Assembly (NCBI RefSeq): GCF_030719295.1
Contig: NZ_CP120997.1
Coordinates: 620,001-684,000, forward strand
DNA length: 64,000 nt
Source: Streptomyces sp. Mut1
GTDB taxonomy: Bacteria > Actinomycetota > Actinomycetes > Streptomycetales > Streptomycetaceae
Direction: 5' to 3'
Notes under the pieces: model-generated
What the model was told of the DNA's origin: nothing
The model's input: the letters and a program-made list of their open reading frames with translations, nothing else
Database searches by the model: none
Shown: piece by piece, positions 8,159 through 29,757 of the stretch
Numbering within the stretch: position 1 is the first letter of the stretch
Layout of the letters: each line of letters begins with the position of its first letter
Position numbers and translations under genes: made by a program

Positions 8159-10837
8159 TCACAGGGGCCACTGGGCCGGGGGCGGGCCGCCGAGCGTCTG
8201 CTCGGACCAGATGACCTTGCCCCGGTCGGTGTACCTGGCGCCCCAGCGCTCGGCGAACTGGGCGACCAGGAAGAGGCCACGGCCGCCCTCGTCCGTCGTG
8301 GCGGCGTAGCGCAGGTGCGGGGAGGTGCTGCTGCAGTCCGACACCTCGCAGATCAGGGACCGGTCGTGGAGCAGCCGGACCTTGATGGGCTCGGAGCCGT
8401 AGCGGATGGCGTTGGTGACGAGTTCGCTCAGGATGAGTTCGGTGACGAACCCCTCCTCGTCGAGACCCTGGTCGGACAGCCAGCGGATGGCCTGCTTGCG
8501 GACGCCCGCGACGGCGGCGGGGTCCGGGGGGACGTCCCACTGGATGCGCCGGGACGGGTCCAGCGTGCGGGTGCGGGCGACCAGCAGGGCGACGTCGTCG
8601 CCGGGGTGGCTGGGCATCATGGCGTCCAGCACGTCGTCGCAGGTCTCCTCCGGTGTCCGGTCGCGGTCGGTGAGCGAGCGGCGCAGGAGTTCGAGGCCGT
8701 CGTCGATGTCGCGGTCGCGGCGCTCCACCAGGCCGTCCGTGTACAGGACCAGACGGCTTCCCTCGGGCACCTGGAACTCGGTCATCTCGAAGGGCATGCC
8801 GCCGATCCCGAGGGGCAGCCCGGCCGGCATCTCGGGGAAGCTCACCGTGCCGTCGGGCAGCACGAGCGCGGGCCCCGGGTGGCCGGCCCGAGCGATCGTG
8901 AAGCGTCCGGAGACGGCGTCGTAGATCGCGTACAGGCAGGTGGCGCCGGTGATCGCGCCGCCGCCCGTCCCCTCGTCCTGGTCCATCCTGACGACCAGCT
9001 CGTCCAGGTGGCCGAGGAGTTCGTCGGGTGCCAGGTCCAGCGTCGAGAAGTTGAGCACGGTGGTGCGCAGCCGGCCCATGGTGGCCGCGGCGTGCAGGCC
9101 GTGTCCGACGACGTCGCCGACGACGAGGGCGACCCGTGCGCCGGACAGCGGGATCACGTCGAACCAGTCGCCGCCCACGCCGGCCTGTGCCGGCAGGTAG
9201 CGGTAGGCGACGTCCAGGGCGTTCTGCTCGGGCAGCCCGCGCGGAAGGAGGCTGCGCTGAAGGGTGACGGCCATCTCGTGCTCGCGGGTGTAGCGCCAGG
9301 CGTTGTCGACGCTCACGGCGGCACGGGCCACCAGTTCCTCGGCGAAGGAGAGGTCGTCCAGGTCGAAGGACGACTCGTTCTGCGCGCGCCAGAAGTTGGC
9401 CACGCCGAGGATGACACCGCGGGCCCGCAGGGGGACGGAGAGCAGCGAGTGGAATCCGTGCTCCAGGATGTCTGCCGCGTGCTCGGGGTCGGGGTCGCGC
9501 CACCGCTGGGAGGTGGTCAGGTCGGACACGATCCAGGTGTGCCCGACGGTGGTGCCGAGGGACTCCGGGGTGGTCGGAACGAAGCCGATGACTTGCCCCG
9601 CCGGGTAGAGCGGATGGTCGTCGCCGACGCTGCGCACGGCGGTGCGGCGCAGGTTCATGACGTCGCCGACGGGCAGCCGCGGCTCCTCGCCGCGCAGGAC
9701 GGAGTCGGCGAGGTCGACCGTCACGCAGTCGGCGAATCCGGGGGTCGCGACGTCCGCGAGTTCCTGCGCGGTGGTGGTGACGTCGAGAGTGGTGCCGATC
9801 AGGGCGCCCGCCCGGTAGAGCAGCGTCAGCCGCTCGCGTACGGTCTCCGCCCGTCCGGTGACGGCCCGCAGTTCCGTGGTGTCGCGCAGGGTGGCGACCA
9901 TGCCGGGCTGGCCGCCGCGCTCCTCGGTGGGGCGGAGGTTGACGGCGAGCAGCCGGTCCCCCGCGGGCCGCAGCTCGTCCGTGGCGACCTGTCCGGAGGC
10001 CAGGAGTTCGCCGGTCCCGGGGTCCAGGCCGAGGTCGGTGACCGCGCGGCCCTCCGCGTCCGCGGGCAGGTCGAGCAGGCGCCGTGCCTCGTCGTTGGCC
10101 AGCAGCAGCCGGTGGTCGGCGCCGATGATGAGGACGCCCTCGCGCACGGCGTGCAGCACCGCGTCGTGGTGTTCGTACATCCGGGTCATCTCGGCCGGGC
10201 CCAGGCCGCGTGTCTGGCGGCGCAGGCGGCGGCTCACCAGGGCAGCGCCTGCCGTGGTGAGGGCGAGGGCGGCCACTCCGGCGCCGATGGTGAGCGGCAT
10301 GCTCGGGTACGCCAACCGGTTCACGGCCTCGACCCTGATGCCCACGGCCACCAGTCCGGCCACCGATCCGTCCCTGCGCCGGACGGGTACGGCGGAGGCG
10401 ACCGACCTGCCCCGGCTCGCGGAGACCGTACGGGTGACGGAGCGTCCCGCCAGGGCCTCCTCGTAGGGGCCGGGGATCTTCTTGCCGATGAGCGCGATGT
10501 CGCGGTGGGTGTACCGGATGCCGTTGGTGCCGGCCACGATGACGTACTCCACGCCGGTGCTCTGCCGGATCTCCTCGGCGCGCGGCTGGAGGACCTTGGT
10601 GGGGTCCTTGCTGTCCAGCGCGGCGGCGACGCCGGGCGCGTGGGCGAAGGCCTGCGCGACGCTCAGCGACTGGGCACGGGCCGCGCTCATGCTGTCGCGC
10701 CTGCCCTGCACCACCAGGGCGACGACGGCCGCCGAGACGAGCAGGACGACGATGCTCAGCATGAGGACGAAGAACTGGCCCGCCACCGTGCGGACACTGA
10801 ACAGGGCGCGCAGCCGGCGCCCTGGCGGGGTCCGCAC
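8159..10837 (-). CDS. Membrane sensor PP2C (SpoIIE/RsbU) phosphatase with C-terminal HATPase kinase domain
   Basis: About 892 residues. After a short basic N-terminus come a transmembrane segment (VLMLSIVVLLVSAAVVALVV), an extracellular CACHE-like sensor (VAQAFAHAPGVAAAL ... YVIVAGTNGIRYTHRD), a second membrane segment, a PAS domain (EGVLIIGADHRLLLAN), a GAF domain, a SpoIIE-type PP2C phosphatase (GGDWFDVIPL, VGDVVGHGLHAAA, RLVLYTDGLVE) and an RsbW-like HATPase (LILSELVTNAIRYG, EGGRGLFLVAQF). Such proteins act on anti-sigma-factor antagonists in partner-switching cascades, combining phosphatase and anti-sigma kinase modules. The start is uncertain: GTG at 10837 gives a short cytoplasmic tail, and an in-frame GTG at 10951 would add 38 residues. 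A K+ channel gene diverges from it. Confidence 0.85.
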   Translation of the reverse strand: MRTPPGRRLRALFSVRTVAGQFFVLMLSIVVLLVSAAVVALVVQGRRDSMSAARAQSLSVAQAFAHAPGVAAALDSKDPTKVLQPRAEEIRQSTGVEYVIVAGTNGIRYTHRDIALIGKKIPGPYEEALAGRSVTRTVSASRGRSVASAVPVRRRDGSVAGLVAVGIRVEAVNRLAYPSMPLTIGAGVAALALTTAGAALVSRRLRRQTRGLGPAEMTRMYEHHDAVLHAVREGVLIIGADHRLLLANDEARRLLDLPADAEGRAVTDLGLDPGTGELLASGQVATDELRPAGDRLLAVNLRPTEERGGQPGMVATLRDTTELRAVTGRAETVRERLTLLYRAGALIGTTLDVTTTAQELADVATPGFADCVTVDLADSVLRGEEPRLPVGDVMNLRRTAVRSVGDDHPLYPAGQVIGFVPTTPESLGTTVGHTWIVSDLTTSQRWRDPDPEHAADILEHGFHSLLSVPLRARGVILGVANFWRAQNESSFDLDDLSFAEELVARAAVSVDNAWRYTREHEMAVTLQRSLLPRGLPEQNALDVAYRYLPAQAGVGGDWFDVIPLSGARVALVVGDVVGHGLHAAATMGRLRTTVLNFSTLDLAPDELLGHLDELVVRMDQDEGTGGGAITGATCLYAIYDAVSGRFTIARAGHPGPALVLPDGTVSFPEMPAGLPLGIGGMPFEMTEFQVPEGSRLVLYTDGLVERRDRDIDDGLELLRRSLTDRDRTPEETCDDVLDAMMPSHPGDDVALLVARTRTLDPSRRIQWDVPPDPAAVAGVRKQAIRWLSDQGLDEEGFVTELILSELVTNAIRYGSEPIKVRLLHDRSLICEVSDCSSTSPHLRYAATTDEGGRGLFLVAQFAERWGARYTDRGKVIWSEQTLGGPPPAQWPL

Positions 10838-17600: not shown

Positions 17601-17845
17601 TCCGGATTGGATGTCGGTGACCGTAAGCGAGAAACGACGGCCGGAACAAGCCCGGAATTGGTGATCACAATTGTTTTGCAAGATCAATCAAAGGAAATGC
17701 TCATCATCGGCGGCGCCGACGGAAGTCAACTTTCTTGGCGCGTCTGGGAACCGCGACACCGGATCATGCGTCAGGGATGACAAACGTGACGCTGGCCACT
17801 GCGCCCGAAAGGGGCGATTTACCCGGTGTTCACACCTTTAGGCAC

Positions 17846-18358
17846 CATTAAATACCCCCGAAATGCCCCTTTTTGGCTTTTGATCCATAAGTGGGCAATT
17901 GGGACATCATGGCGTGGCCGGGGCCGAGGGCGCCGGTGGGTTCGCCGAGCAGGGTGAGCGGCGTCCGCCGGGCGAGGACCCTCGCGAGCCGGCACCGCCG
18001 GCACTGACCGCCGGAGAGCCGGCCGACGCGTTCACCGCGCCCGGTGCGGGGCGGCGGAGCCGGGCGGTGGTGCGCAACAGGGTCGACTTGCCGCATCCGT
18101 TGGGGCCCACGACGGCGACGGCCTGTCCGGCGGGCACGGCGCGACCGACGTCCGCAACGACGGGGCGCCCGGTTCGCCGGTGAGGCGGTGCCGGGTGCCG
18201 CCGGCCGAGCTGGCGCCGATGACGAGGGAGAGCGGAACGAGGGGCGGCGGCGGGAGTACGAGCCCGATGGCCGCCCAGCGGACGAAACACCCTTCCCTCA
18301 GCAGGATTTCACTGGAGCGGGTCCTTGATTTGGGCCGTCCCCCTTGCACGATCGACAT
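17846..18358 (-). pseudogene. Decayed siderophore ABC transporter (permease start plus ATPase fragments)
   Basis: Three minus-strand frames hold pieces of a ferric-siderophore transporter. From ATG 18358, one frame gives a FecCD-like first membrane segment (18286-18200; RWAAIGLVLPPPPLVPLSLV, then IGASS). A second frame then carries an ATPase Walker A, GPNGCGKST, at 18107-18081. A third carries the signature LSGGQ (18018-18004) and a Walker B region reading LTLLGEPTG (17958-17938), where the usual Asp before Glu is Gly. About 0.5 kb remains of genes that would span over 2 kb, so frameshifts and deletions have removed function. It starts exactly at the iron box shared with the siderophore operon, suggesting it was once the divergent uptake operon. 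Confidence 0.7.
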
Positions 18359-18376
18359 ATGGTTAGCCTAACCTAA
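18358..18376. promoter_or_regulatory. Iron box (DmdR/IdeR-type operator)
   Basis: The 19-mer TATGGTTAGCCTAACCTAA matches the actinomycete iron-box consensus TTAGGTTAGGCTAACCTAA at 16 of 19 positions. It lies between the decayed transporter and the siderophore operon and should silence the latter when iron is ample. Confidence 0.85.
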
Positions 18377-18521
18377 GTGTCCCGAGCGGATTTCGGCGGC
18401 TCCCGGGGCACATCCCTGCCCTGAGACGACGTCAATCGCTCTGTACCGCTCCCCTGTCGGTTGCTACGGAACGCCCGCCCGGACCCACTCGCCCCTCGCA
18501 TACACACGGAGATCCCAGGCC

Positions 18522-18809
18522 ATGGCGCCGCATCCCACCCCTTCCTCCCGTCGTCTCCTGCGCCCGGCCGTGGCGGTCTCGCCGGCCGGCTTCAGCGGTC
18601 TCGCCCCGAGCACCCGCGGGCCGTCCGGCAAACCGGACGCGTCCGCCCACGCGGGCAAGGCGACGACGACTCGGGTGACGGATGCGACCGGAACGGCGGT
18701 GAGCGTCCACCAGGCGACCGTGATCGACGGCACCAGGTGGACGAGCCCCGGCGGCGCGCAGGCGGCCGTCTCCGTGCGCGACGACATCCGGAAGGCGATG
18801 GTCAAGTGA
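18522..18809 (+). CDS. Small unknown protein, first gene of the siderophore operon
   Basis: A 95-residue protein of no family I recognise. The N-terminus is Arg-containing and then mildly hydrophobic ([23 protein letters not shown]), which could be a weak export signal. The rest is Thr/Val/Ala-rich ([20 protein letters not shown]) without Cys. Its stop overlaps the GTG start of the DHB dehydrogenase gene (GTGA), so the two are translationally coupled, and it is the first gene after the iron box. GGAGATC lies upstream of ATG 18522. It may be a functional accessory protein or a shortened remnant of a larger gene. Confidence 0.5.
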
Positions 18810-19603
18810 GCACCGCCCAGGAACTCAGCGGCCGGCTGGCCCTCGTGACGGGAGCGGGCCGCGGCATAGGCGAGGCGGTCGTGCGGGTCCTCGTCGAACG
18901 CGGCTGCCGGGTGCTGGCGACCGACGTGGACCGCGAAGGCATCGACGCGCTCGCCCGCGAACACGGCGGGAGCGTCGTCGCGCGGGTCCTCGACGTCACG
19001 GACGCGGCGGCCGTGGAGGCCCTCGTCGCCGATGCCGAGGAGACCGTCGGCGCACTCGACATCGCGGTCAACGTCGCCGGGATACTGCGCTGTTCGCCGG
19101 TCGGCGAGCTGACGGACGAGGACTGGGCGGCGACGTTCGCCGTCAACACCAACGGGGTGTTCCACGTCTCGCGGGCCGTCTCGCGCCGGATGGCAGGGCG
19201 CGGCGCGGGCAGCATCGTCACGGTCGCCTCCAACGCGGCGGGCATACCCAGGACGACCATGGCGGCCTACGCCGCGTCGAAGGCCGCGTCCGTCATGTTC
19301 ACCAAATGCCTCGGCCTTGAGCTGGCGCCCCTGGGCGTGCGGTGCAACACCGTGTCACCGGGCTCCACCCTCACCGACATGCAGCGCGGGATGTGGCCGG
19401 CCGGCGAGGAGCGGGACGACGGGCCCGCGGCCCGGCGCGTCATCGCCGGGGACCTGGCGAGCTACCGCACGGGCATACCGCTCGGCCGGATCGCCGACCC
19501 CTCGGACATCGCCGAGGCCGTCGCCTTCCTCGTGTCCGACCGCGCCCGCCACATCACCCTGCACGACCTCTACGTCGACGGCGGCGCCACCCTGCGGGCC
19601 TGA
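18806..19603 (+). CDS. dhbA: 2,3-dihydro-2,3-dihydroxybenzoate dehydrogenase
   Basis: A 265-residue short-chain dehydrogenase (EntA/DhbA type) that oxidises 2,3-dihydro-2,3-dihydroxybenzoate to 2,3-dihydroxybenzoate (DHB) with NAD+. It shows the cofactor loop TGAGRGIG (residues 15-22), NVAG, catalytic Ser in VASNAAG and YAASK. The function is chosen over other SDRs because genes for isochorismate synthase, DHB ligase and isochorismatase follow directly. The GTG start overlaps the stop of the small gene before it. A 60-base gap separates it from the isochorismate synthase gene. It acts in the cytoplasm as the last step of DHB synthesis. Confidence 0.92.
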
Positions 19604-19663
19604 CCTGCACGCACCACGTCATTGACAGCGGCTCGCAGCCCTCCCCCACTGGAGACCACCACG

Positions 19664-20875
19664 ATGTCTGCCTCACTGCGCGTACCCTCCGCCCCGCCCC
19701 AGGCCGCCCCACCGCACTCCCCCTCATCCGGTCCGGCCACCGCACTCCTGGACGCCTACCGGCCCGGCACGGACCGCTTCCTCGCCTCGCCCGGCCGCAC
19801 CCTGCTCGGCACCGGCACCGCCGCCGAGGTCCCGCACGACGACCGGCCGCCAGCCGTCCGCGTACAGGAGGCCCTGGACGCCGCCCGGCGGGCCGGGAAC
19901 GCGGCGCCGGTCGTCATGGGTTCGCTGCCCTTCGACCCGCAGGCACCGGCCGCGCTGGCCGTCCCGCAGACCGTGCGCCGGGCATCCGCCCTGCGCGACG
20001 ACCCGTTCGTCGCCCTGCCCGTCCCGGCCGCCGGGCCCGGCACCTGGCAGACCCGGGAGGTCCCGTCGGCGGCCGGTTACGGTGCCGCGGTGGACGCGGC
20101 GGTCCGGCGGATGCGGGCGGGCGAGTTCGACAAGGTCGTCCTCGCGCGCACCCTGGAACTGACCTCCTCCCAGGACCTCGATCTGCCCGCCATGCTGCGC
20201 CGGCTCGCCCGCCACGACCCGGGCGGCTACACCTTCGCCGTGCCCAGCGGCCCCGGCCGCACCCTCATCGGCGCCAGCCCCGAACTCCTCGTCGCCCGCA
20301 CCGGAGGCCGGCTCACCGCCAACCCGCTGGCCGGCTCCGCACCCCGCAGCAACGACCTCGCCGAGGACGTGCGGCGGGCCGCCGCGCTGCTGGAGTCGCC
20401 CAAGGACCTCCACGAGCACGCCGTCGTCGTCGATGCCGTGCGCGAGGCCCTCGCCCCCTTCTGCACCGGCCTGGACGTGCCCGAACAGCCCACGCTGGTA
20501 CGGACGGAGGCCATGTGGCACCTGTCCACGACCGTCACCGCAACCCTCACCGACCCCGCCACCACCTCGCTCGCCCTCGCCTCCGCGCTGCACCCCACGC
20601 CCGCCGTGTGCGGCACGCCCACCGACGTGGCGCGGGCCGTCATCGCCCGGTCCGAGCCCTTCGAACGGGGCGCCTACACCGGCATGGTGGGCTGGCAGGA
20701 CGCGGACGGCGACGGTGAGTGGGTGGTGACGATCCGCTGCGCCGAGGCGGAGGGCCGCTCGCTGCGGCTGTTCGCCGGGGCGGGGGTGGTCGCCGCGTCC
20801 TCGCCGGAAGCCGAGACCGCAGAGACCGGCGCCAAGTTCCGTACGTTCCTCAACGCCGTGGGAGCCGCCCTGTGA
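19664..20875 (+). CDS. dhbC: Isochorismate synthase
   Basis: A 403-residue chorismate-binding enzyme (EntC/DhbC type) converting chorismate to isochorismate, the entry step to DHB. The C-terminal two thirds carry family landmarks: [72 protein letters not shown] and [12 protein letters not shown]. The N-terminal 60 residues are Pro/Ala-rich and less conserved. GGAGACC precedes ATG 19664. Its stop overlaps the GTG start of the ligase gene by 4 bases (GTGA), indicating coupled translation. Menaquinone-type MenF is excluded by context. Confidence 0.92.
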
Positions 20876-22545
20876 GCACCGCACCGCACGAAGACGCCCC
20901 GACCTGGCCGGCCGGGTTCGCCGCCCGCTACCGGGCGGCCGGGCACTGGCGCGGCGAGACGTTCTCCGGCATGCTGCGCGAACGGGCCGAGGCCCACGGC
21001 GACCGCGTGGCGCTGATCGACCCGGCCCCCGAGCGCCGCGCCTGGACCTATCGCGAACTGGACGAGCGCGCGGCCCGCCTCGCGGCCGGATTCCGGGCGC
21101 GCGGGATAGCCAAGGGCGACCGGGTCGTCGTCCAGCTGCCGAACATCGCCGAGTTCGCCGAGGTCGTCTTCGCCCTCTTCCGGATCGGCGCGCTGCCCGT
21201 CTACGCGCTGCCCGCCCACCGGGAGACGGAGATCGGCTACTTCTGCTCGTTCGCCGAGGCCGTCGCCTACGTGATCCCGGACCGGCACGCCGGGTTCGAC
21301 CACCGCGCGCTGGCGACCGCCGTACAGGAGCGAACGCCCACCCTGAAGCACGTGTTCGTCGTCGGCGACCCGGGGAAGCACACCGCCCTGTCCGACGTAC
21401 CGTGCGAGGAGACCGCGGCGCCCGAGGACGGCCCCGAGCCGCACGACCTGGCCTTCCTCCAGCTGTCCGGCGGCACCACCGGGGTCCCCAAGCTCATCCC
21501 CCGTACACACGACGACTACATCTACTCGCTGCGCGGCTCCAACGAGATCTGCGGCGTCGACGCGGACACCCGCTACCTCGTCGTCCTGCCCGCCGCGCAC
21601 AACTTCCCGATGAGTTCGCCCGGCTGGCTCGGCACGCTGTACGCCGGCGGCACGGTCGTCCTGTGCCCGCGCCCCGACCCCGCGACGGCGTTCCCCCTCG
21701 TCGAGCGGGAGCGCGTCACGATGACGGGCATGGTGCCGCCGCTCGCCCTGCTGTGGACCGAGGCCGCCCCGGGCGCCGGGCAGGACCTCTCCAGCCTGGA
21801 GCTGGTCCTGGTCGGCGGCGCCAAGTACAGCGAGACGGCGGCCCGCCGCTTGGAGCCCGCGCTCGGGTGCCGGCTGATGCAGGTCTTCGGCATGGCCGAG
21901 GGCCTCGTCAACTACACCCGGCTGGACGACGACCAGGAGACCGTGGTCACCACCCAGGGCCGGCCGATCTCCGAGGACGACGAGATCCGCATCGTGGACG
22001 ACGCCGGACACGAGGTGGCCGAGGGGGACTTCGGGCACCTGCTCACCCGGGGCCCGTACACGATCCGCGGCTACTGGCGCGCTCCCGAGCACAACAGGTC
22101 GGCGTTCACCGAGGACGGCTTCTACCGCACGGGCGACATCGTGCGCCGCACCCCGGGCGGGCATCTCGTGGTCGAGGGCCGGGCGAAGGACCAGATCAAC
22201 CGGGGCGGCGAGAAGGTCGCGCCGGAGGAGATCGAGAACATCATCCTCGCCCACCCGGCCGTGCACGACGTGTCGGTGGTCGGTGTGGCCGACGCGTATC
22301 TCGGCGAGCGCACCCTCGCCTATGTGATCCTGCGCGAGGACTCCGGACCGCTCGGGGCCCTGGCCGTGAAACGGCATGTGCGCGAGCGCGGCGTCGCCGC
22401 GTACAAGATCCCCGACCTCGTCGAGTTCGTCGACGTCTTCCCGCAGACCGGAATCGGCAAGGTCAGCAAGAAGGGCCTGCGCTCCGAATCCCCCGCGGGA
22501 CCGGCCCCGTCCGCGCCCGCCTCCCCCTCCGCCGAGCAGCACTGA
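20872..22545 (+). CDS. dhbE: 2,3-dihydroxybenzoate-AMP ligase
   Basis: A 557-residue stand-alone adenylation enzyme (EntE/DhbE) that activates DHB with ATP and loads it on an aryl carrier protein. Motifs: [18 protein letters not shown] (A3), [17 protein letters not shown] (A5), YRTGDIV (A7) and [14 protein letters not shown] (A8), with the catalytic Lys near the C-terminus ([11 protein letters not shown]). [14 protein letters not shown] is typical of DHB/salicylate activators. The C-terminal tail is only Pro/Ser/Ala-rich and holds no carrier domain. The GTG start overlaps the preceding stop. Confidence 0.94.
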
Positions 22546-22576
22546 GCCCGCCCCGAGCGGCACGAAAGGCCTCCTC

Positions 22577-23209
22577 ATGGCACTCCCCGCCATCGCCCCC
22601 TACGCCCTGCCGGGCGCGGACGAACTCCCCGTGAACCGTGTCGGCTGGACCGTCGACCCGATGCGCGCCGTGCTGCTCGTACACGACCTGCAGAATCACT
22701 TCCTGAGCGCCTACCGCCCCGGCGAGCAGCCGCTGACCGGCATGCTGGAGAACACGGCGCGCATCATCGAGACCTACCGCCGCGCCGGGATCCCGGTCGT
22801 CTACTCGGCACAGCGCGGCGGCCAGACCCCCGAGGAGCGCGGGCTCCAGCTCGACTTCTGGGGGCCGGGCGTGGCCGATGACCCGGAGGCTCTGGCGACT
22901 CCGGAAGCGGTCGCGCCCGCGCCCGGCGACACCGTCCTCACCAAGTGGAAGTACAGCGCGTTCGCCCGCACCGATCTGGAGGCGCTGATCCGCAAGGAGG
23001 AACGCGACCAGCTGGTGATCACCGGGGTGTACGCGCACATCGGGGTGCTGATGAGCGCGGCCGACGCGTGGATGCGGGACATCCAGGCGTTCGTGGTGGC
23101 CGACGCCGTCGCGGACTTCTCGCGCGCGGACCACGACATGGCGCTGCGCTGGGCGGCGGGGCGCTGCGCGGTCGTGACGACCACCGATCTGCTTCTGAAG
23201 GAGGTCTGA
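22577..23209 (+). CDS. dhbB: Isochorismatase without aryl carrier domain
   Basis: A 210-residue isochorismatase converting isochorismate to 2,3-dihydro-2,3-dihydroxybenzoate plus pyruvate. Catalytic features are visible: Asp in LLVHDLQNHFL, Lys in LTKWKYSAF, and ITGVYAHIGVLMSAADAWM, where Tyr-Ala-His replaces the usual Cys/Tyr-Ala-His loop. EntB and DhbB usually run to about 285-310 residues with a C-terminal aryl carrier protein (LGxDS). Here the protein stops right after LLKEV, so that domain is absent. GAAAGG precedes ATG 22577. The 3' end contains a perfect AAGGAGG that may serve downstream translation. Confidence 0.92.
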   Translation: MALPAIAPYALPGADELPVNRVGWTVDPMRAVLLVHDLQNHFLSAYRPGEQPLTGMLENTARIIETYRRAGIPVVYSAQRGGQTPEERGLQLDFWGPGVADDPEALATPEAVAPAPGDTVLTKWKYSAFARTDLEALIRKEERDQLVITGVYAHIGVLMSAADAWMRDIQAFVVADAVADFSRADHDMALRWAAGRCAVVTTTDLLLKEV

Positions 23210-23214
23210 GCGCC

Positions 23215-23292
23215 GTGGCTCCCGCCCCGACCGCGTACGCGCGGCACCGCGCCGAAGCCCGGTCCCCGCTGCCGGGGGTGGGTGTCTCATGA
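23215..23292 (+). CDS. Possible 25-residue coupling peptide before the synthetase
   Basis: GTG 23215 lies 9 bases after AAGGAGGT, the best ribosome binding site in the operon, and opens a 25-residue frame whose TGA overlaps the synthetase ATG (ATGA). The peptide (VAPAPTAYARHRAEA...) has no recognisable function. It would carry ribosomes to the synthetase start by coupling. The alternative is that the site acts at a distance on ATG 23289. Confidence 0.3.
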   Translation: MAPAPTAYARHRAEARSPLPGVGVS

Positions 23293-26200
23293 CGGTCCTG
23301 CTCGCCGGCGGGACGGCGGCCCGTGCGTCGAAGGGCGGTCTGCCGCTGACGGCGGCCCAGTTGGGCATGTGGTACGCGCAGTCGCTCGATCCGCTGAGCC
23401 CGGCGCAGAACACCGCCGAGTACCTGGAGATCGACGGGCCGGTCGATCCCGGGGTCTTCGCCACCGCGCTGCGCCGGGTCGTCGCCGAGACGGACGCGCT
23501 GCGCGTGTGTGTGAAGGACGGGCCCGACGGGCCCCGCCAGCACATCGCCGCCTCCGTCCAACTGCCCCTGACCGTGCGCGATCTGCGGGAGGTGCCGGAC
23601 GGACGGGGGCAGGCGCTGGCGTGGATGCGGGCGGATCTGGCCCGGCCGTGCGACCTGGCGGCGGGGCCGCTGTTCGGGTACGCGCTGTTCCGGCTCGGCG
23701 ACGAGCGCTGGCTCTGGTACCAGCGCGTCCACCACCTCGTCGTGGACGGCTTCGGCCACTCGCTCCTCGTGCGGCGCACCGCCGAGGTGTATTCGGCGCT
23801 CGCCCGGGGCGAGGCCCCCGCCCCGCGCAGCTTCGGCACGCTGGCCGGTCTGGTCGCGCAGGACGCCGCGTACCGGGAGTCGGACGCGTTCGAAGCGGAC
23901 CGTGCCCACTGGTCGGCCGCGTTCGCCGACGGGCCCGAGGCGCCGAGGCTCGCGGGCCGGGGCGCGCTGCCCTCCCGTACGTCCCTGCGGCGCACCGCCC
24001 ATCTGGGCCCGCGGGCCACCGGGCGGGTGCGGGAGCTGGCCGCGCAACTGCGCGCGACCTGGCCCGAGGTGCTGATCGCCGCGCAGGCGCTGTACGTGTC
24101 CCGGGCCACGGGCCGCCGCGATGTGGTGCTCGGGCTGCCGATGATGGGCCGGGTCGGCCCGGTGGCGCTGCGGGTTCCCGGCATGGTGACGAACGTGCTG
24201 CCGCTGCGGGTGGCCGTCGAGCCGGAGGCGGCCTTCGGTGAGCTGGTGCGCGAGGTGGTCCTCGGGATCCGGACGGTCCGCCGCCATCAGCGTTACCGCT
24301 ACGAGGACATCCGCCGCGATCTGCGGCTGCTCGGCGAGAACCGGGCGCTGGTCGGCCCGCTCGTCAACGCGATGCCGTTCGTCTACGACGTGGACTTCGC
24401 CGGGGCGCGGGCCCGGTCCCGCAATCTGTCCGCCGGCCCGGTGGACGACCTGACCGTCAACATCTACGACCGCGGCGACGGCCGGGGCCTGATCATCGAC
24501 CACGACGCCAATCCGGCGCTGTACGACGAGGGGGCGCTCGCCGCACACCAGGAGCGCTTCCTGCGTCTGGTGGAGCGGCTGGCCGACGCGGGCCCCCGCA
24601 CCCCGCTCGCCGCGCACGGCATCGCCACACCGGCCGAACTGGAGCTGGTCCGCGACCGGTTCGTCCGCACCGGCCGCGAGCTGCCGCCGACGACCCTGAT
24701 CGGCCCGGTCGAGGCGCAGGCCGTCCGCACCCCGGACGCGACCGCTCTGGTCCACGGGGATGTCTCGCTCACCTACGCGGAGCTGAACACCCGGGCCAAC
24801 CGGCTGGCCCGCCATCTGCGGACCCTGGGCGCCCGGCCCGGGGCGGTGGTGGCGGTGGCCGTGCCCCGCTCGGCGGAGCTCGTCGTCTCGCTGCTCGCCG
24901 TGCTGAAGACCGGGGCCGCCTATCTGCCGCTGGACCCGGACCACCCGTCGGAGCGGATCACGCACATGCTCCGGGACGCGGAGCCGGTCTGCGCCGTCAC
25001 GGACCGCGCGGACCGCCTCCCCGCGGACACGGGGACTCCCCCGGTGGTCCTGGCGGGGCTGGACGTCTCCGGATACCTGTGGACCGATCCGCCGCGCCCG
25101 CTGACGCCCGCGCACCCGGCGTACGTCATCCACACCTCGGGCTCCACCGGCCGTCCCAAGGGCGTCGTCGTCCCGCACCGGGCGATCGACAACCGGCTGC
25201 GCTGGATGCAGGACGCCTATCCGCTGGGTCCCGGCGACCGGGTGCTGCACAAGACGCCGTCGTCGTTCGACGTGTCGGTATGGGAGTTGTTCTGGCCGCT
25301 GCGTGCGGGGGCCGCGCTCGTCGTCGCCGAGCCCGGGGGTCACAAGGACCCCGGGTACCTGGCCCGGCTGATCCGCGAACAGTCCGTGACCGTCTGCCAT
25401 TTCGTGCCGTCGATGCTCCGGGCCTTCCTGGCCGGTGCGGACGCCGGCCGGTGCGCGGGGCTGCGCCGCGTGTTCTCCAGCGGCGAGGAGCTGCCCCGGG
25501 AGACGGCCCACGCCTTCGGGCGCGCCCTGCCGCAGGTCGCCCTGCACAATCTGTACGGGCCGACGGAGGCCGCCGTCGATGTCACCTTCCACCCGTGCGC
25601 CCCGGACGGCGCCGGTCCGGTGCCGATCGGCCGGCCCGTGTGGAACACCCGGCCGTATGTGCTGGACGACGCGCTGCGGCCCTGCCCGCCGGGTGTGGCG
25701 GGAGAACTCTGCCTGGGCGGGCGGCAGTTGGCCGACGGCTATCTGAACCGCCCGGCGCTCACCGCGGCCCGCTTCGTCGCCGACCCCTTCGGACCGCCCG
25801 CCGCGCGCATGTACCGCACGGGCGACCTGGCGCGCTGGACCGAGGAGGGCGAGCTCGAATACCTCGGCCGCACCGACGACCAGGTCAAGCTGCGCGGGCA
25901 GCGCGTCGAACTCGGCGAGATCGAGGCCGCCCTGGCCGCCCACCCCGGCGTGGACGGCGCCTGTGCCCTGGTGCGCGAGGACCGGCCGGACGACCAGCGG
26001 CTCGTCGGGTACGTGACGGGGACCGCCGACCCCTCGGACGTACGGGCCGCACTGACGCGGCAGCTTCCGGAGCACCTGGTGCCGGCGGCGGTGGTCGCGC
26101 TCGACGCGTTCCCGCTGGGCCCCAGCGGCAAGCTGGACCGCCGGGGGCTGCCCGCCCCCGTCCACACCGGCGGTGCCGGTGCGCGCCCGGCGAAGGGCAC

Positions 26201-27209
26201 CCGCGAGGAGGCGCTGACCGCGCTGTTCGCGGAGGTGCTCGGGGTGGCGGAAGCCGGCCCGGACGACGCGTTCTTCGACCTGGGCGGCACCTCGCTGCTC
26301 GCGGTGCGGCTCGTGGCGCGGGTGCGGGAGGAGTTCGGCGCCGCGCTGACGGTCGGTTCGCTGTTCGAGGCGTCCACGCCGGAGGCGCTCGCCGCCCGGA
26401 TCGACGCCGCCGGGCCGGCGTCGGGGGACGCGCTGGGAGCCGTCCTGCCGCTGCGCGGGACCGGCGACCGCGCTCCCCTGTTCGCCATCCACCCGGCGGG
26501 CGGCATCGCGTGGGCCTACGCCGGTCTGTCGGCCCGGCTGGGACCGCACCAGCCGGTGTACGGCATCCAGGCCCGTGGGCTGGTCCGCGGCGAACCGCTC
26601 CCGCGCACCCTGGAGGAGGAGGCCGCCGGCCATGTGGACCGCATCCGCTCTGTGCAGGGCGACGGCCCCTACCGGCTGCTCGGCTGGTCGGTCGGCGGGG
26701 TGCTCGCCCACGCGGTGGCGGTGCTGCTCCAGGAGAGCGGCCAGAAGGTCGAACTGCTGGCGCTGCTGGACGCGTTCCCCGCCGAGCAGTGGCGCGGGCG
26801 CCCGGCGCCCGGGGAGGGCGACGCCCTCACGGCGGTGCTGCGCATGGCGGGCTTCGAGCGCGGTGGTGAACGCACCCGTGGCGATGTCCTGGCCACGCTG
26901 CGCCGGGCGGGCAGTCCGCTGGCCGGTCTCGGGGACCACACGCTGTCCCGGATCGTCGACATCGTGCCCAACCACGCCCGCATGATGCGTGAGCACACGC
27001 ACCGGCGGTACGAGGGCGACCTGCTGTTCTTCACCGCGGCGGCGCCCCGCGCGGAGCACTGGCTCAGCCACCGGGCCTGGCGGGCGCATGTGACGGGCAC
27101 CGTGGTCAACCACGACCTGGACTGCACCCACGCGCAGGTGATGCGGGACCGGCAGCTCGACGTCATCGCTCCCGTGCTCGCGGCGCGGCTGGCAGCACCG
27201 GACGCCTGA
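23289..27209 (+). CDS. entF: EntF-like nonribosomal peptide synthetase, C-A(Ser)-PCP-TE
   Basis: A 1306-residue single-module synthetase, close to the length of EntF (about 1293). The condensation domain (1-450) has HHLVVDG. The adenylation domain (about 470-960) has HTSGSTGRPKG and YGPTEAAVDV. Reading the specificity positions by alignment to remembered EntF gives D-V-W-H-F-S-L-V-D-K, the serine code. The carrier domain has DLGGTSLLAV with the Ser for phosphopantetheine. The thioesterase has GWSVGG. By analogy, it would join DHB to L-Ser and let the thioesterase trimerise three units into enterobactin. No MbtH gene, epimerase or second module is present. The ATG overlaps a small upstream frame. 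A terminator follows, ending the operon. Confidence 0.94.
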   Translation: MTVLLAGGTAARASKGGLPLTAAQLGMWYAQSLDPLSPAQNTAEYLEIDGPVDPGVFATALRRVVAETDALRVCVKDGPDGPRQHIAASVQLPLTVRDLREVPDGRGQALAWMRADLARPCDLAAGPLFGYALFRLGDERWLWYQRVHHLVVDGFGHSLLVRRTAEVYSALARGEAPAPRSFGTLAGLVAQDAAYRESDAFEADRAHWSAAFADGPEAPRLAGRGALPSRTSLRRTAHLGPRATGRVRELAAQLRATWPEVLIAAQALYVSRATGRRDVVLGLPMMGRVGPVALRVPGMVTNVLPLRVAVEPEAAFGELVREVVLGIRTVRRHQRYRYEDIRRDLRLLGENRALVGPLVNAMPFVYDVDFAGARARSRNLSAGPVDDLTVNIYDRGDGRGLIIDHDANPALYDEGALAAHQERFLRLVERLADAGPRTPLAAHGIATPAELELVRDRFVRTGRELPPTTLIGPVEAQAVRTPDATALVHGDVSLTYAELNTRANRLARHLRTLGARPGAVVAVAVPRSAELVVSLLAVLKTGAAYLPLDPDHPSERITHMLRDAEPVCAVTDRADRLPADTGTPPVVLAGLDVSGYLWTDPPRPLTPAHPAYVIHTSGSTGRPKGVVVPHRAIDNRLRWMQDAYPLGPGDRVLHKTPSSFDVSVWELFWPLRAGAALVVAEPGGHKDPGYLARLIREQSVTVCHFVPSMLRAFLAGADAGRCAGLRRVFSSGEELPRETAHAFGRALPQVALHNLYGPTEAAVDVTFHPCAPDGAGPVPIGRPVWNTRPYVLDDALRPCPPGVAGELCLGGRQLADGYLNRPALTAARFVADPFGPPAARMYRTGDLARWTEEGELEYLGRTDDQVKLRGQRVELGEIEAALAAHPGVDGACALVREDRPDDQRLVGYVTGTADPSDVRAALTRQLPEHLVPAAVVALDAFPLGPSGKLDRRGLPAPVHTGGAGARPAKGTREEALTALFAEVLGVAEAGPDDAFFDLGGTSLLAVRLVARVREEFGAALTVGSLFEASTPEALAARIDAAGPASGDALGAVLPLRGTGDRAPLFAIHPAGGIAWAYAGLSARLGPHQPVYGIQARGLVRGEPLPRTLEEEAAGHVDRIRSVQGDGPYRLLGWSVGGVLAHAVAVLLQESGQKVELLALLDAFPAEQWRGRPAPGEGDALTAVLRMAGFERGGERTRGDVLATLRRAGSPLAGLGDHTLSRIVDIVPNHARMMREHTHRRYEGDLLFFTAAAPRAEHWLSHRAWRAHVTGTVVNHDLDCTHAQVMRDRQLDVIAPVLAARLAAPDA

Positions 27210-27522: not shown

Positions 27523-29757
27523 TTGTCAACTCGGGAAAGTGCCGAATTGCAGAAGGAGCAGGAATTCGTCGACCGGGTCTACGACCGTGTCGATGTGCTG
27601 CGCGGTGTCACCGCCGAGCGGGTCCAGGACGCCCTGACGCCCGTCGGCAACGGCCTCCAGGCCCGGCTCGAACGTGATGTGCTCGTCTCCGAGCGCTCGG
27701 GTCTGCTCGCCGCTCTGAACGCGGTCGACGGTTCGCTCTGTTTCGGCCGCATCGATCTCTCGGACGGCGCCGCGCACCATATCGGCCGTATCGGAATCCG
27801 CGAGGACAACACCGATCACACGCCCATGCTGATCGACTGGCGCGCACCGGTCGCCCGTCCCTTCTACCTCGCCACCGGTCACACTCCGATGGGTCTGCGC
27901 AGGCGCCGGCACATCACCACCGAGGGCCGCACCGTCACCGAGCTGCACGACGAGATCCTCGACGTCCGGGACCGGGAGCGCACCGGCTTCGAGGACCCGA
28001 GCGGCGACACCGTCCTGCTCGCCGCCGTGAACTCCGCGCGCACCGGACGCATGGCCGACATCGTACGGACCATCCAGGCCGAGCAGGACCGCATCATCCG
28101 CGCCCCGCACCGCGGTGTCCTCGTGGTCGAGGGCGGCCCCGGCACCGGCAAGACGGCGGTGGCGCTGCACCGGGCGGCGTTCCTGCTGTACGAGCACCGC
28201 GAGCTGCTCGCCAAGCGCGCCGTCCTGATCGTGGGCCCCAATCCGGCGTTCCTGAGCTACATCGGCGAGGTGCTGCCCGCGCTCGGCGAGACCGGTGTCC
28301 TGCTCGCCACCCAGGCCGAGCTGTTCCCCGGGGTCCACGCCCGCGGCACCGACACGCCCCGCGCCGCGGCGGTGAAGGGCGGCGCGGCCATGGCCGAGGC
28401 GCTGGCCCTGGCCGTGCGCGACCGGCAGCGGCTGCCCGAGCCCGGCGCGCCGCTGGTCATCGCGCACGACGACGGCGACCTGGTCCTGGACTGGGAGATC
28501 GCCTACGAGGCCCGGCAGGCGGCGCGCGACACCCGGCTGTCGTACAACCTCGCCCGGCCGCACTTCGCCTTCCGGATCATCGACGCGCTGACCGCGCAGC
28601 TCACCGAGCGCATCGGCGCCGACCCGTACGGCGGCCCCAACTTCCTCGGCCCCGACGACATCGCCCAGCTCGGCAAGGGCGTCGCCGTCAGCCGGGAGGT
28701 GCACGTCGCGATCGACACGCTGTGGCCGCCCCTCGCCCCGGAGGGCTTCCTCGCCGACTACCTCGCCGAGCCGGTCCACCTGCCGGCCGAGGACGCCGAG
28801 GCCATCCGGCGCGCGCCGGGCGAGGGCGGCTGGACACCTGCCGACGTACCGCTGCTGGACGAGGCGGCCGAACTCCTCGGGGTGGACGACAGCGCCGAGC
28901 GGGCGGCGGCCGAGGCCGAGCGCCAGGAGCGGATCGCGTACGCCCAGGGGGTGCTGGAGCTGTCCAGGGGCTCGGAGTCCTTCGAGTTCGAGGACGAGGA
29001 GTCGGAGGTGCTCGCCGCGCACGACATCATCGACGCCGAACGGATGGCGGAGCGGCAGGAGGAGGCCGATCACCGCAGCGCGGCTGAACGTGCCGCCGCC
29101 GACCGGACCTGGGCGTTCGGGCACATCATCGTGGACGAGGCGCAGGAGCTGTCGCCGATGGCGTGGCGGCTGCTGATGCGCCGTTCCCCGACCCGGTCGC
29201 TGACCCTGGTGGGCGACCCGGCGCAGACCTCGGAGGAGGCGGGGATCGGCTCGTGGAAGGAGATCCTCGATCCGTACGTGGGCGATCGTTTCGAGCACGT
29301 ACGGCTCGGGGTCAACTACCGTACGCCCGCCGAGATCATGGCGGTCGCGGCGAAGGTGCTGCGGGCCGACGACCCCTCGTTCGAGCCGCCCGGCTCGGTG
29401 CGGTCCACCGGGGAGGTGCCGTGGGTCCGGGACGCCGGCGACGACCTGGCGGGCGCGGTGGCGCGGGCGGTCGCCGAGCTGACACCGGAGGAGGGACGCC
29501 TCGCGGTGATCGCGCCACGTGAGCTGCACGAGGAGATCGCCGCCCCGCTGGACGGGGTCGCGGCCGGCGCCGAGCCCGATCTGACCCGGACGGTGGTCCT
29601 GCTCGGCCCCCGGCAGGCCAAGGGCCTCGAATTCGACCACGTGCTGGTCGTGGAGCCCGGCCGGTTCGGGACCAGCGATCTGTATGTGGCGCTGACCCGG
29701 GCCACGCAGCGGCTGGGGATCGTGCACCGCGAGGCGCTTCCCGCCTCTCTGCGCTGA
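27523..29757 (+). CDS. HelD/HelR-like UvrD-family ATPase (RNA polymerase rescue)
   Basis: A 744-residue superfamily 1 ATPase. The N-terminal helical arm (ESAELQKEQEFVDRVYDRVD) is typical of HelD proteins that enter RNA polymerase channels. Walker A is VEGGPGTGKTAVALHRAAFL (about residue 205), Walker B is HIIVDEAQELSPMAW, and further motifs are LVGDPAQT, NYRTPAEIM and QAKGLEFDHVLVVEP ... LYVALTRATQRL. In actinobacteria such proteins dislodge stalled or rifamycin-bound polymerase (HelR) or recycle it (HelD). TTG 27523 is used because AGGGAG sits just upstream and the helical arm starts there. The gene has its own promoter-like leader and a terminator after it. Whether it gives rifamycin resistance cannot be told. 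Confidence 0.85.
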   Translation: MSTRESAELQKEQEFVDRVYDRVDVLRGVTAERVQDALTPVGNGLQARLERDVLVSERSGLLAALNAVDGSLCFGRIDLSDGAAHHIGRIGIREDNTDHTPMLIDWRAPVARPFYLATGHTPMGLRRRRHITTEGRTVTELHDEILDVRDRERTGFEDPSGDTVLLAAVNSARTGRMADIVRTIQAEQDRIIRAPHRGVLVVEGGPGTGKTAVALHRAAFLLYEHRELLAKRAVLIVGPNPAFLSYIGEVLPALGETGVLLATQAELFPGVHARGTDTPRAAAVKGGAAMAEALALAVRDRQRLPEPGAPLVIAHDDGDLVLDWEIAYEARQAARDTRLSYNLARPHFAFRIIDALTAQLTERIGADPYGGPNFLGPDDIAQLGKGVAVSREVHVAIDTLWPPLAPEGFLADYLAEPVHLPAEDAEAIRRAPGEGGWTPADVPLLDEAAELLGVDDSAERAAAEAERQERIAYAQGVLELSRGSESFEFEDEESEVLAAHDIIDAERMAERQEEADHRSAAERAAADRTWAFGHIIVDEAQELSPMAWRLLMRRSPTRSLTLVGDPAQTSEEAGIGSWKEILDPYVGDRFEHVRLGVNYRTPAEIMAVAAKVLRADDPSFEPPGSVRSTGEVPWVRDAGDDLAGAVARAVAELTPEEGRLAVIAPRELHEEIAAPLDGVAAGAEPDLTRTVVLLGPRQAKGLEFDHVLVVEPGRFGTSDLYVALTRATQRLGIVHREALPASLR

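What the first reader, a model, noticed from the sequence alone, without database searches (positions are those of the whole stretch)
18806..27209. Enterobactin-type assembly line in an actinomycete with no aryl carrier protein
The DHB genes and an EntF-like C-A(Ser)-PCP-TE synthetase (pocket code read as DVWHFSLVDK) predict enterobactin. However, the isochorismatase stops before the carrier domain, the ligase tail has none, and the synthetase begins directly with its condensation domain. No MbtH is present either. A carrier encoded elsewhere must work in trans, or the line has a different logic or is inactive.
Basis: partly seen in the sequence, partly recalled or inferred. Interest (0 to 1): 0.75.

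Follow-up and report, generated by a model that had tools for sequence, protein, structure and literature searches.

The report
Enterobactin cluster with deleted carrier gene
This bacterium's enterobactin-type gene cluster has lost its own carrier-protein gene, and the only matching carrier lies about 200,000 bases away in a second iron-scavenger cluster, so the two clusters probably work as one pathway and may still share that carrier.

Summary
In detail: dhbA-C-E-B-F encode no aryl carrier protein (ArCP) and no MbtH. A stand-alone isochorismatase is known in Streptomyces; most relatives carry a separate ArCP gene (dhbG) between dhbB and dhbF. Here dhbG has an internal deletion and a 25-codon remnant. 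A second strain and two relatives have remnants too, so it is no sequencing error. The uptake genes upstream are also fragments in this strain. The only DhbG-like carrier found in the genome is a stand-alone ArCP about 202 kb away, in a catecholate-hydroxamate NRPS cluster with MbtH but no DHB genes, whose first condensation domain resembles DhbF's. All 12 dhbG-less genomes found at this locus have that ArCP, and each keeps dhbC here (4), beside the ArCP (7) or at both (1), as expected if the loci form one pathway. So the window cassette most likely makes and activates DHB for the second line. DhbF is still under purifying selection here, though broken or missing in the other ten genomes outside this species, so it may borrow the same ArCP. 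In-trans DHB supply is published; carrier loss plus reciprocal dhbC loss is the new variant.

The parts
17781..18365 (-). Remnants of the ferric-siderophore ABC importer (ATPase pieces near 17902-18172; start of a FecCD permease near 18163-18365); most of that permease and a second permease-like frame are deleted
   Evidence: blastn to L074 and L082, where ATPase and one FecCD gene each are intact; second permease-like frame in L074 read by eye, not scanned; about 283, 225 and 2008 bp missing relative to L074
18358..18376 (.). Iron box (DmdR/IdeR-type, 2 mismatches to the recalled consensus), upstream of dhbA
   Evidence: identical in L074, L069 and L082; six simulated 64-kb windows gave no site with 4 or fewer mismatches
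18522..18809 (+). Gutted gene for a siderophore-binding lipoprotein (95 codons left of about 328; about 700 bp deleted inside)
   Evidence: intact orthologue is Peripla_BP_2 in L074 and L082
18806..19603 (+). dhbA, 2,3-dihydro-2,3-dihydroxybenzoate dehydrogenase
   Evidence: TIGR04316 331 bits, over cut-off; only match at E 1e-50 or better in the genome
19664..20875 (+). dhbC, isochorismate synthase
   Evidence: TIGR00543 over cut-off; DhbC model 483.1 bits, just under its cut-off of 486; next best match in this genome is 43% identical
20872..22545 (+). dhbE, 2,3-DHB-AMP ligase
   Evidence: TIGR02275 733.9 bits, over cut-off; the only one over cut-off in this genome
22577..23209 (+). dhbB, stand-alone isochorismatase without carrier domain
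   Evidence: PF00857 at residues 33-205 of 211, no other family
23215..23292 (+). dhbG remnant: 25-codon reading frame left by an internal deletion (net 150 bp) of the aryl carrier gene; phosphopantetheine-serine region gone
   Evidence: alignment with intact dhbG of six relatives; remnants in L068, L069, L074; translation
23289..27209 (+). dhbF, EntF-like C-A(Ser)-PCP-TE synthetase, intact frame and motifs
   Evidence: Pfam domains; motifs; best solved relative EntF 5ja1
27523..29757 (+). helD-like helicase gene (named from memory of the family, not scanned), conserved neighbour that marks the locus in related species

Best explanation
The window holds a DHB-making and DHB-activating cassette (DhbC, DhbB, DhbA, DhbE) left over from a full enterobactin cluster whose carrier gene dhbG was deleted in an ancestor. 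DHB-AMP made by DhbE is loaded onto the stand-alone ArCP encoded at 436 kb, about 202 kb away, and the first condensation domain of NRPS1 there passes DHB into a five-module, TE-less peptide with hydroxylated (and probably formylated) ornithine, a catecholate-hydroxamate siderophore. Shown by sequence: the deletion, uniqueness of the ArCP and of DhbE, condensation-domain kinship, co-occurrence, reciprocal dhbC loss, iron boxes at both loci. Inferred: loading, module order, product, co-expression. DhbF is still constrained and may also draw DHB from this ArCP (about 42%) or be on its way out.
For: Intact relatives have dhbB-dhbG-dhbF; window, L074, L068 and L069 have dhbG remnants. A profile of 13 DhbG finds one good carrier in this genome (75.2 bits; the other match 17.3), also in the 4 other dhbG-less genomes tested, and no separate one above 30 bits in 3 genomes with dhbG in place. 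With named relatives added, 12 of 12 dhbG-less genomes at this helicase locus have it at 73-82 bits, and A0642, with intact dhbG at the same locus, has no second match at E 1e-8. dhbC: window locus only in 4, beside the ArCP only in 7, both in 1, none in 0 of 12. The only DHB-AMP ligase over cut-off in each of 5 genomes is the one at this locus. NRPS1's first C domain scores 252.7 bits to DhbF's C, other C domains found 50.1 at most. The ArCP cluster has Orn monooxygenase, formyltransferase, SIP, FecCD, MbtH, no TE. dN/dS of dhbA, C, E, B is 0.13-0.19 against L068 and L069. Named loci, including others outside this clade: all 16 of 80 dhbB loci without dhbG lie in genomes with an ArCP of 67-89 bits elsewhere (the 64 loci with dhbG were not so tested as a set). 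Wider genus: 14 of 16 genomes without dhbG beside dhbB have an ArCP of 70 bits or more elsewhere, against 3 of 29 with it (counted by hand; Fisher 4e-7, not corrected for relatedness, threshold chosen after seeing the scores). In-trans DHB supply by enterobactin-type clusters is in print (PMC10127220, passages; PMC6746918, passages).
Against: No expression, chemistry or binding data. 2 of the 16 wider genomes without adjacent dhbG (G166, G090) show no such ArCP at E 1e-10 (only 29 candidates per genome were scored). In the window strain no dhbC lies beside the ArCP, so the case rests on the window's dhbC being used. The ArCP is only 45-51% identical to the 6 DhbG compared. The specificity of the ArCP for DHB is inferred from kinship.
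Confidence: 0.78

Rival explanations
1. DhbF still makes enterobactin or DHB-Ser oligomers by taking DHB from the 436-kb ArCP in trans; one carrier feeds two assembly lines. Not exclusive of the best explanation.
For: Intact frame and motifs. Over 960 comparable codons, since the split from strain ATexAB-D23, which shares the deletion, dhbF changed at 9 nonsynonymous and 14 synonymous codons on the window branch (omega about 0.26, p 0.001) and 6 and 9 on the other (0.26, p 0.01); pairwise values to intact clusters are 0.26-0.27. The carrier keeps the Met and Phe of the recalled EntB-EntF contact patch.
Against: 28 of 647 sites invariant in 19 intact DhbF are changed here (4.3%; intact ones, each left out in turn, 0-3.6%), while dhbA, C, E, B are in the normal range. 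dhbF is frameshifted or truncated in L068 and L069 and absent from the locus in 8 of the 12 dhbG-less genomes. The third recalled contact position is Ala in 13 of 13 DhbG and Phe in 5 of 5 trans ArCP. The strain's uptake genes for this cluster are broken.
Confidence: 0.42
2. DhbF is a vestige, lost too recently to have decayed; the cassette feeds only the second NRPS line.
For: Carrier and uptake module gone, raised change at invariant sites, decay or loss in 10 of 12 dhbG-less genomes, omega about 1.03 and 0.6 in L069 and L068. In the same-species pair the dhbF ratio (0.33) is no lower than that of the neighbour helD (0.31) and above those of dhbA, C, E, B (0-0.23).
Against: Fewer nonsynonymous changes than neutral on the stem and on both tips of this species; ATexAB-D23 also keeps its uptake genes.
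Confidence: 0.45
3. The line is dead or gives only free DHB; no carrier in trans is used.
For: No carrier in the cluster; free DHB is a possible end product.
Against: dhbE, an activating ligase of no use for free DHB, is constrained (omega 0.08-0.16 on five branches) and kept in 12 of 12 dhbG-less genomes at this locus; dhbC is kept beside the ArCP where it is gone here.
Confidence: 0.08
4. The missing carrier is an assembly or sequencing error.
For: None found.
Against: A second strain, in a different assembly, has the same gap, and two relatives have variant remnants.
Confidence: 0.01

Closest known systems
Griseobactin dhbABCEFG and Streptomyces varsoviensis ens cluster (EnsB1/EnsB2)
   Same: Isochorismatase and ArCP are separate genes; EnsF is a Ser-predicted C-A-PCP-TE (PMC10188961, section 3.1 and passages; griseobactin DhbB/DhbG from passages of PMC12210187; the griseobactin paper itself not seen, its gene list recalled)
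   Different: Here the ArCP gene is a remnant and the uptake module is broken
Qinichelin (Streptomyces sp. MBT76) and megalochelin (Streptomyces ID71268): DHB supplied in trans
   Same: TE-less NRPS line fed with DHB by a cassette associated with an enterobactin-type cluster elsewhere (PMC10127220, passages; the qinichelin paper PMC5696649 is not held)
   Different: For megalochelin the other cluster is expected to form DHB-Ser; here it has lost its carrier, and related species have lost DhbF as well. Product here not known
Stenotrophomonas EntB/EntB'
   Same: Single-domain isochorismatase with separate ArCP; the paper also reports that S. muris and S. riyadhensis have EntA, B, C, E and F but no detected EntB', so an enterobactin-type set without its ArCP has been noted before (PMC12210187, passages)
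   Different: In S. maltophilia the carrier lies in the same locus; for the two species without it the passages seen name no replacement
Caboxamycin-enterobactin cross-talk, Streptomyces sp. NTK937
   Same: DHB of an enterobactin pathway enters another pathway (PMC5481532, passages)
   Different: The cross-talk product was found in a mutant; no carrier loss in the passages seen

Membership tests
Enterobactin-type biosynthetic cluster | DHB genes dhbA, B, C and E | tested here: met
Enterobactin-type biosynthetic cluster | Ser-specific C-A-PCP-TE synthetase | tested here: met
   specificity is a prediction
Enterobactin-type biosynthetic cluster | Aryl carrier, fused or adjacent | tested here: not met
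   only a remnant
Enterobactin-type biosynthetic cluster | Linked ferric-siderophore uptake genes | tested here: not met
   remnants in this strain
Enterobactin-type biosynthetic cluster | Produces enterobactin | not testable with these tools
   needs LC-MS
Catecholate-hydroxamate line fed in trans (qinichelin-like) | NRPS cluster with ornithine hydroxylation and no DHB synthesis genes | tested here: met
   monooxygenase; no isochorismatase, DhbC, DHB ligase or DhbA match in 394-436 kb
Catecholate-hydroxamate line fed in trans (qinichelin-like) | DHB-type ArCP and a DHB-accepting first C domain | tested here: met
   by sequence kinship only
Catecholate-hydroxamate line fed in trans (qinichelin-like) | No terminal thioesterase | tested here: met
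   both NRPS
Catecholate-hydroxamate line fed in trans (qinichelin-like) | Product carries DHB made by the distant cassette | not testable with these tools
   needs mutants and LC-MS

The most novel reading that the evidence does not exclude
One stand-alone aryl carrier protein about 200 kb away serves two assembly lines, DhbF and a TE-less catecholate-hydroxamate NRPS, so that after loss of dhbG the enterobactin line survives only by borrowing the other cluster's carrier, and DhbF is adapting to it.
Probability: 0.35. Interest if true: 0.65.

Novelty: new variant of a known kind. Interest (0 to 1): 0.5.

Why it matters
Read alone, this would be called an enterobactin cluster. The comparison suggests two distant clusters that cannot be understood apart, and a graded natural series (intact cluster, carrier lost, synthetase decaying, only dhbA-E-B left, dhbC kept at the other locus) showing how one siderophore line can be absorbed by another. 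It also offers a direct test of whether one carrier can serve two synthetases.

Tried and rejected
The 95-codon frame just upstream of dhbA was tried as a hidden ArCP: no Pfam or NCBIfam match, later shown to be a remnant of a binding-protein gene. A fused carrier in dhbB or dhbE: none. Other stand-alone PP-binding frames listed do not score with the DhbG profile: only 2 matches at E 10 or better in this genome, the second inside a 5504-codon frame. Long direct repeats as the cause of the uptake-gene deletions: only short matches at the junctions. Two other DhbG-like hits (G155:C43, 56 bits; G171:C1:7018769, 54 bits) and the stretch around another isochorismatase gene (G000:C1:220000-236000) were fetched but hardly pursued. 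The EntB M249/F264/A268 contact residues, the specificity anchor positions, the iron-box consensus and the qinichelin details are recalled or second-hand; none of the 8 papers listed holds the three residue names. Not tried: structure prediction, the 5.8-billion protein search, viral and metagenome collections.

Full report
What is there. Five genes in one direction encode DhbA, DhbC, DhbE, a carrier-free DhbB and an EntF-like DhbF. The genome-wide PP-binding search lists 93 places; the only one in the window is the PCP of DhbF. Seven MbtH genes exist, none in the window. DhbF has the expected motifs, and its best solved relative is EntF.

The missing carrier was deleted. In relatives dhbB is followed by a 75-residue ArCP gene, dhbG, then dhbF; 13 of these were aligned. 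Of 17 loci examined, 13 had dhbG in place and 4 (G155, G171, G116, G147) did not. In the window the interval keeps only the two ends of dhbG as a 25-codon frame. The same-species strain ATexAB-D23 (G155, L074) has the same gap, and A0958 (L068) and A1277 (L069) have variant remnants; A1277 keeps about a dozen leading codons. Streptomyces sp. A0642 (L082) has A-C-E-B-G-F next to the same helicase gene, which points to loss rather than gain. A tree of DhbE, DhbB and HelD puts all 11 dhbG-less rows in one clade (support 99), split into the remnant group of 4 (97) and the others (98).

The rest of the enterobactin line is also decaying. ATexAB-D23 and A0642 have an intact binding protein, FecCD permease and ATPase upstream of dhbA; in the window these are fragments, with about 283, 225, 2008 and 699 bp missing relative to ATexAB-D23; in A0958 and A1277 frames are shortened or not found. 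dhbF is frameshifted and truncated in A0958, internally deleted and truncated in A1277, and absent from the locus in 8 of the 12 dhbG-less genomes; it was not sought elsewhere in them. Only the window's strain and ATexAB-D23 have it whole.

A carrier in trans. A profile of 13 DhbG finds one strong match in this genome, G000:C1:436160-436372, 75.2 bits; the only other match is 17.3. It is a 79-residue protein with a ribosome-binding-like site, whose stop overlaps the start of a siderophore-interacting protein gene. All 12 dhbG-less genomes at the helicase locus have it at 73-82 bits; A0642 and three other genomes with dhbG in place lack a second comparable carrier. Eight of the 12 have a second-type dhbC (67-69% identical) divergent from this ArCP. 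dhbC is at the window locus only in 4 (window, ATexAB-D23, A0958, A1277), beside the ArCP only in 7, at both in 1 (col6), nowhere in 0. In col6 dhbA sits on another contig. Such reciprocal loss is expected when both loci feed one pathway.

What the second cluster is. From 394 to 436 kb: MbtH, an esterase, ABC transporters, NRPS2 (3 A, 3 PCP), binding protein, ornithine monooxygenase, formyltransferase, NRPS1 (2 A, 2 PCP, starting with C), FecCD permease, binding protein, SIP, ArCP; no TE. Orthologous genes lie in the same order in G155, G171, G116 and G147 as far as the stretches fetched reach. NRPS1's first C domain scores 252.7 bits against DhbF's C domain; the other C domains found reach 50.1. 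The window's DhbE is the only DHB-AMP ligase over cut-off. Both loci carry iron boxes.

Selection. Against A0958 and A1277, dN/dS is 0.13-0.19 for dhbA, C, E and B but 0.51-0.53 for dhbF. By branch, dhbF has omega about 1.03 in A1277, 0.6 in A0958, 0.34 on the stem of the window's species and 0.26 on each tip; the tips depart from neutrality (p 0.001 and 0.01; together 4e-5, stem 7e-5). So dhbF was still under constraint in this species after the carrier was lost. Against that, 28 of 647 otherwise invariant sites are changed, more than in any of 19 intact sequences, and in the same-species pair dhbF (0.33) is less constrained than dhbA, C, E, B (0-0.23) though like helD (0.31). These are simple counts, not a codon model, over 960 of 1306 codons by branch.

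Wider pattern. Of 80 named dhbB loci, 64 have a dhbG hit and 16 do not. The reverse test on the 64 was not made as a set. L106 (S. halstedii), outside the helicase group, also has a short frame in place of dhbG before a dhbF, apparently an independent case. In a separate sample of 199 genus genomes, 45 have a DhbB of 64% identity or more; 29 have an ArCP beside it, 16 not. Of the 16, 14 have an ArCP of 70 bits or more not adjacent (in G075 only 4 kb away); of the 29, 3 do (G133, G036, G048). The genomes are related, overlap with the named ones, and only 29 candidates per genome were scored.

Literature. Split isochorismatase and ArCP: PMC10188961 (section 3.1), PMC12210187 (passages), which also reports two Stenotrophomonas species with EntA, B, C, E and F but no detected EntB'. 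DHB in trans from an enterobactin-type cluster: PMC10127220 (passages), and PMC6746918 (passages) reporting Gubbens 2017, which is not held. Cross-talk of DHB: PMC5481532 (passages). Non-cognate MbtH can substitute in some cases: PMC7593251 (passages). The listings of searches (14 of 14, 9 of 9, 15 of 684, 15 of 17, 12 of 37, 12 of 2184 papers) show, by title and abstract start, none on loss of the carrier gene from a Streptomyces enterobactin-type cluster; papers outside this open library were not seen.

Verdict. Confirmed observation, mostly explained: not a new carrier-free chemistry, but a cluster whose carrier was deleted and whose DHB output most likely goes to a second siderophore line, with DhbF's fate open.

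Noticed in passing
window 17781-18809: Ferric-siderophore uptake genes reduced to fragments by several separate deletions, while the same-species strain ATexAB-D23 has them intact.
   Followed up: yes
L106 (S. halstedii), after dhbB at about 10631-10720: Another short frame in place of dhbG before a dhbF, outside the helicase group; its genome has an 89-bit ArCP elsewhere. Apparently an independent carrier loss.
   Followed up: partly
L071 (col6), G201:C6:203644-204429: In col6 the DHB pathway is spread over three contigs: dhbC-E-B at the helicase locus, a second dhbC plus ArCP, and dhbA.
   Followed up: partly
L115, L116, L125, L126, L127, L131: Loci with DhbA, DhbE and DhbB at 70-82% but a DhbC (where found) of 48-50% and a DhbG of 46-56% identity: apparently another type of catechol cluster.
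   Followed up: no
G036:C2:680945, G048:C10:169099: A second full-strength DhbG-type carrier (about 147 bits) away from dhbB.
   Followed up: no
G166, G090: DhbB at 65-68% identity with neither an adjacent dhbG nor another ArCP at the threshold used.
   Followed up: no
G155:C43:1604-1801 (L158), G171:C1:7018769-7018969 (L159): A further DhbG-like carrier of 54-56 bits in some genomes of the clade; context not worked out.
   Followed up: no
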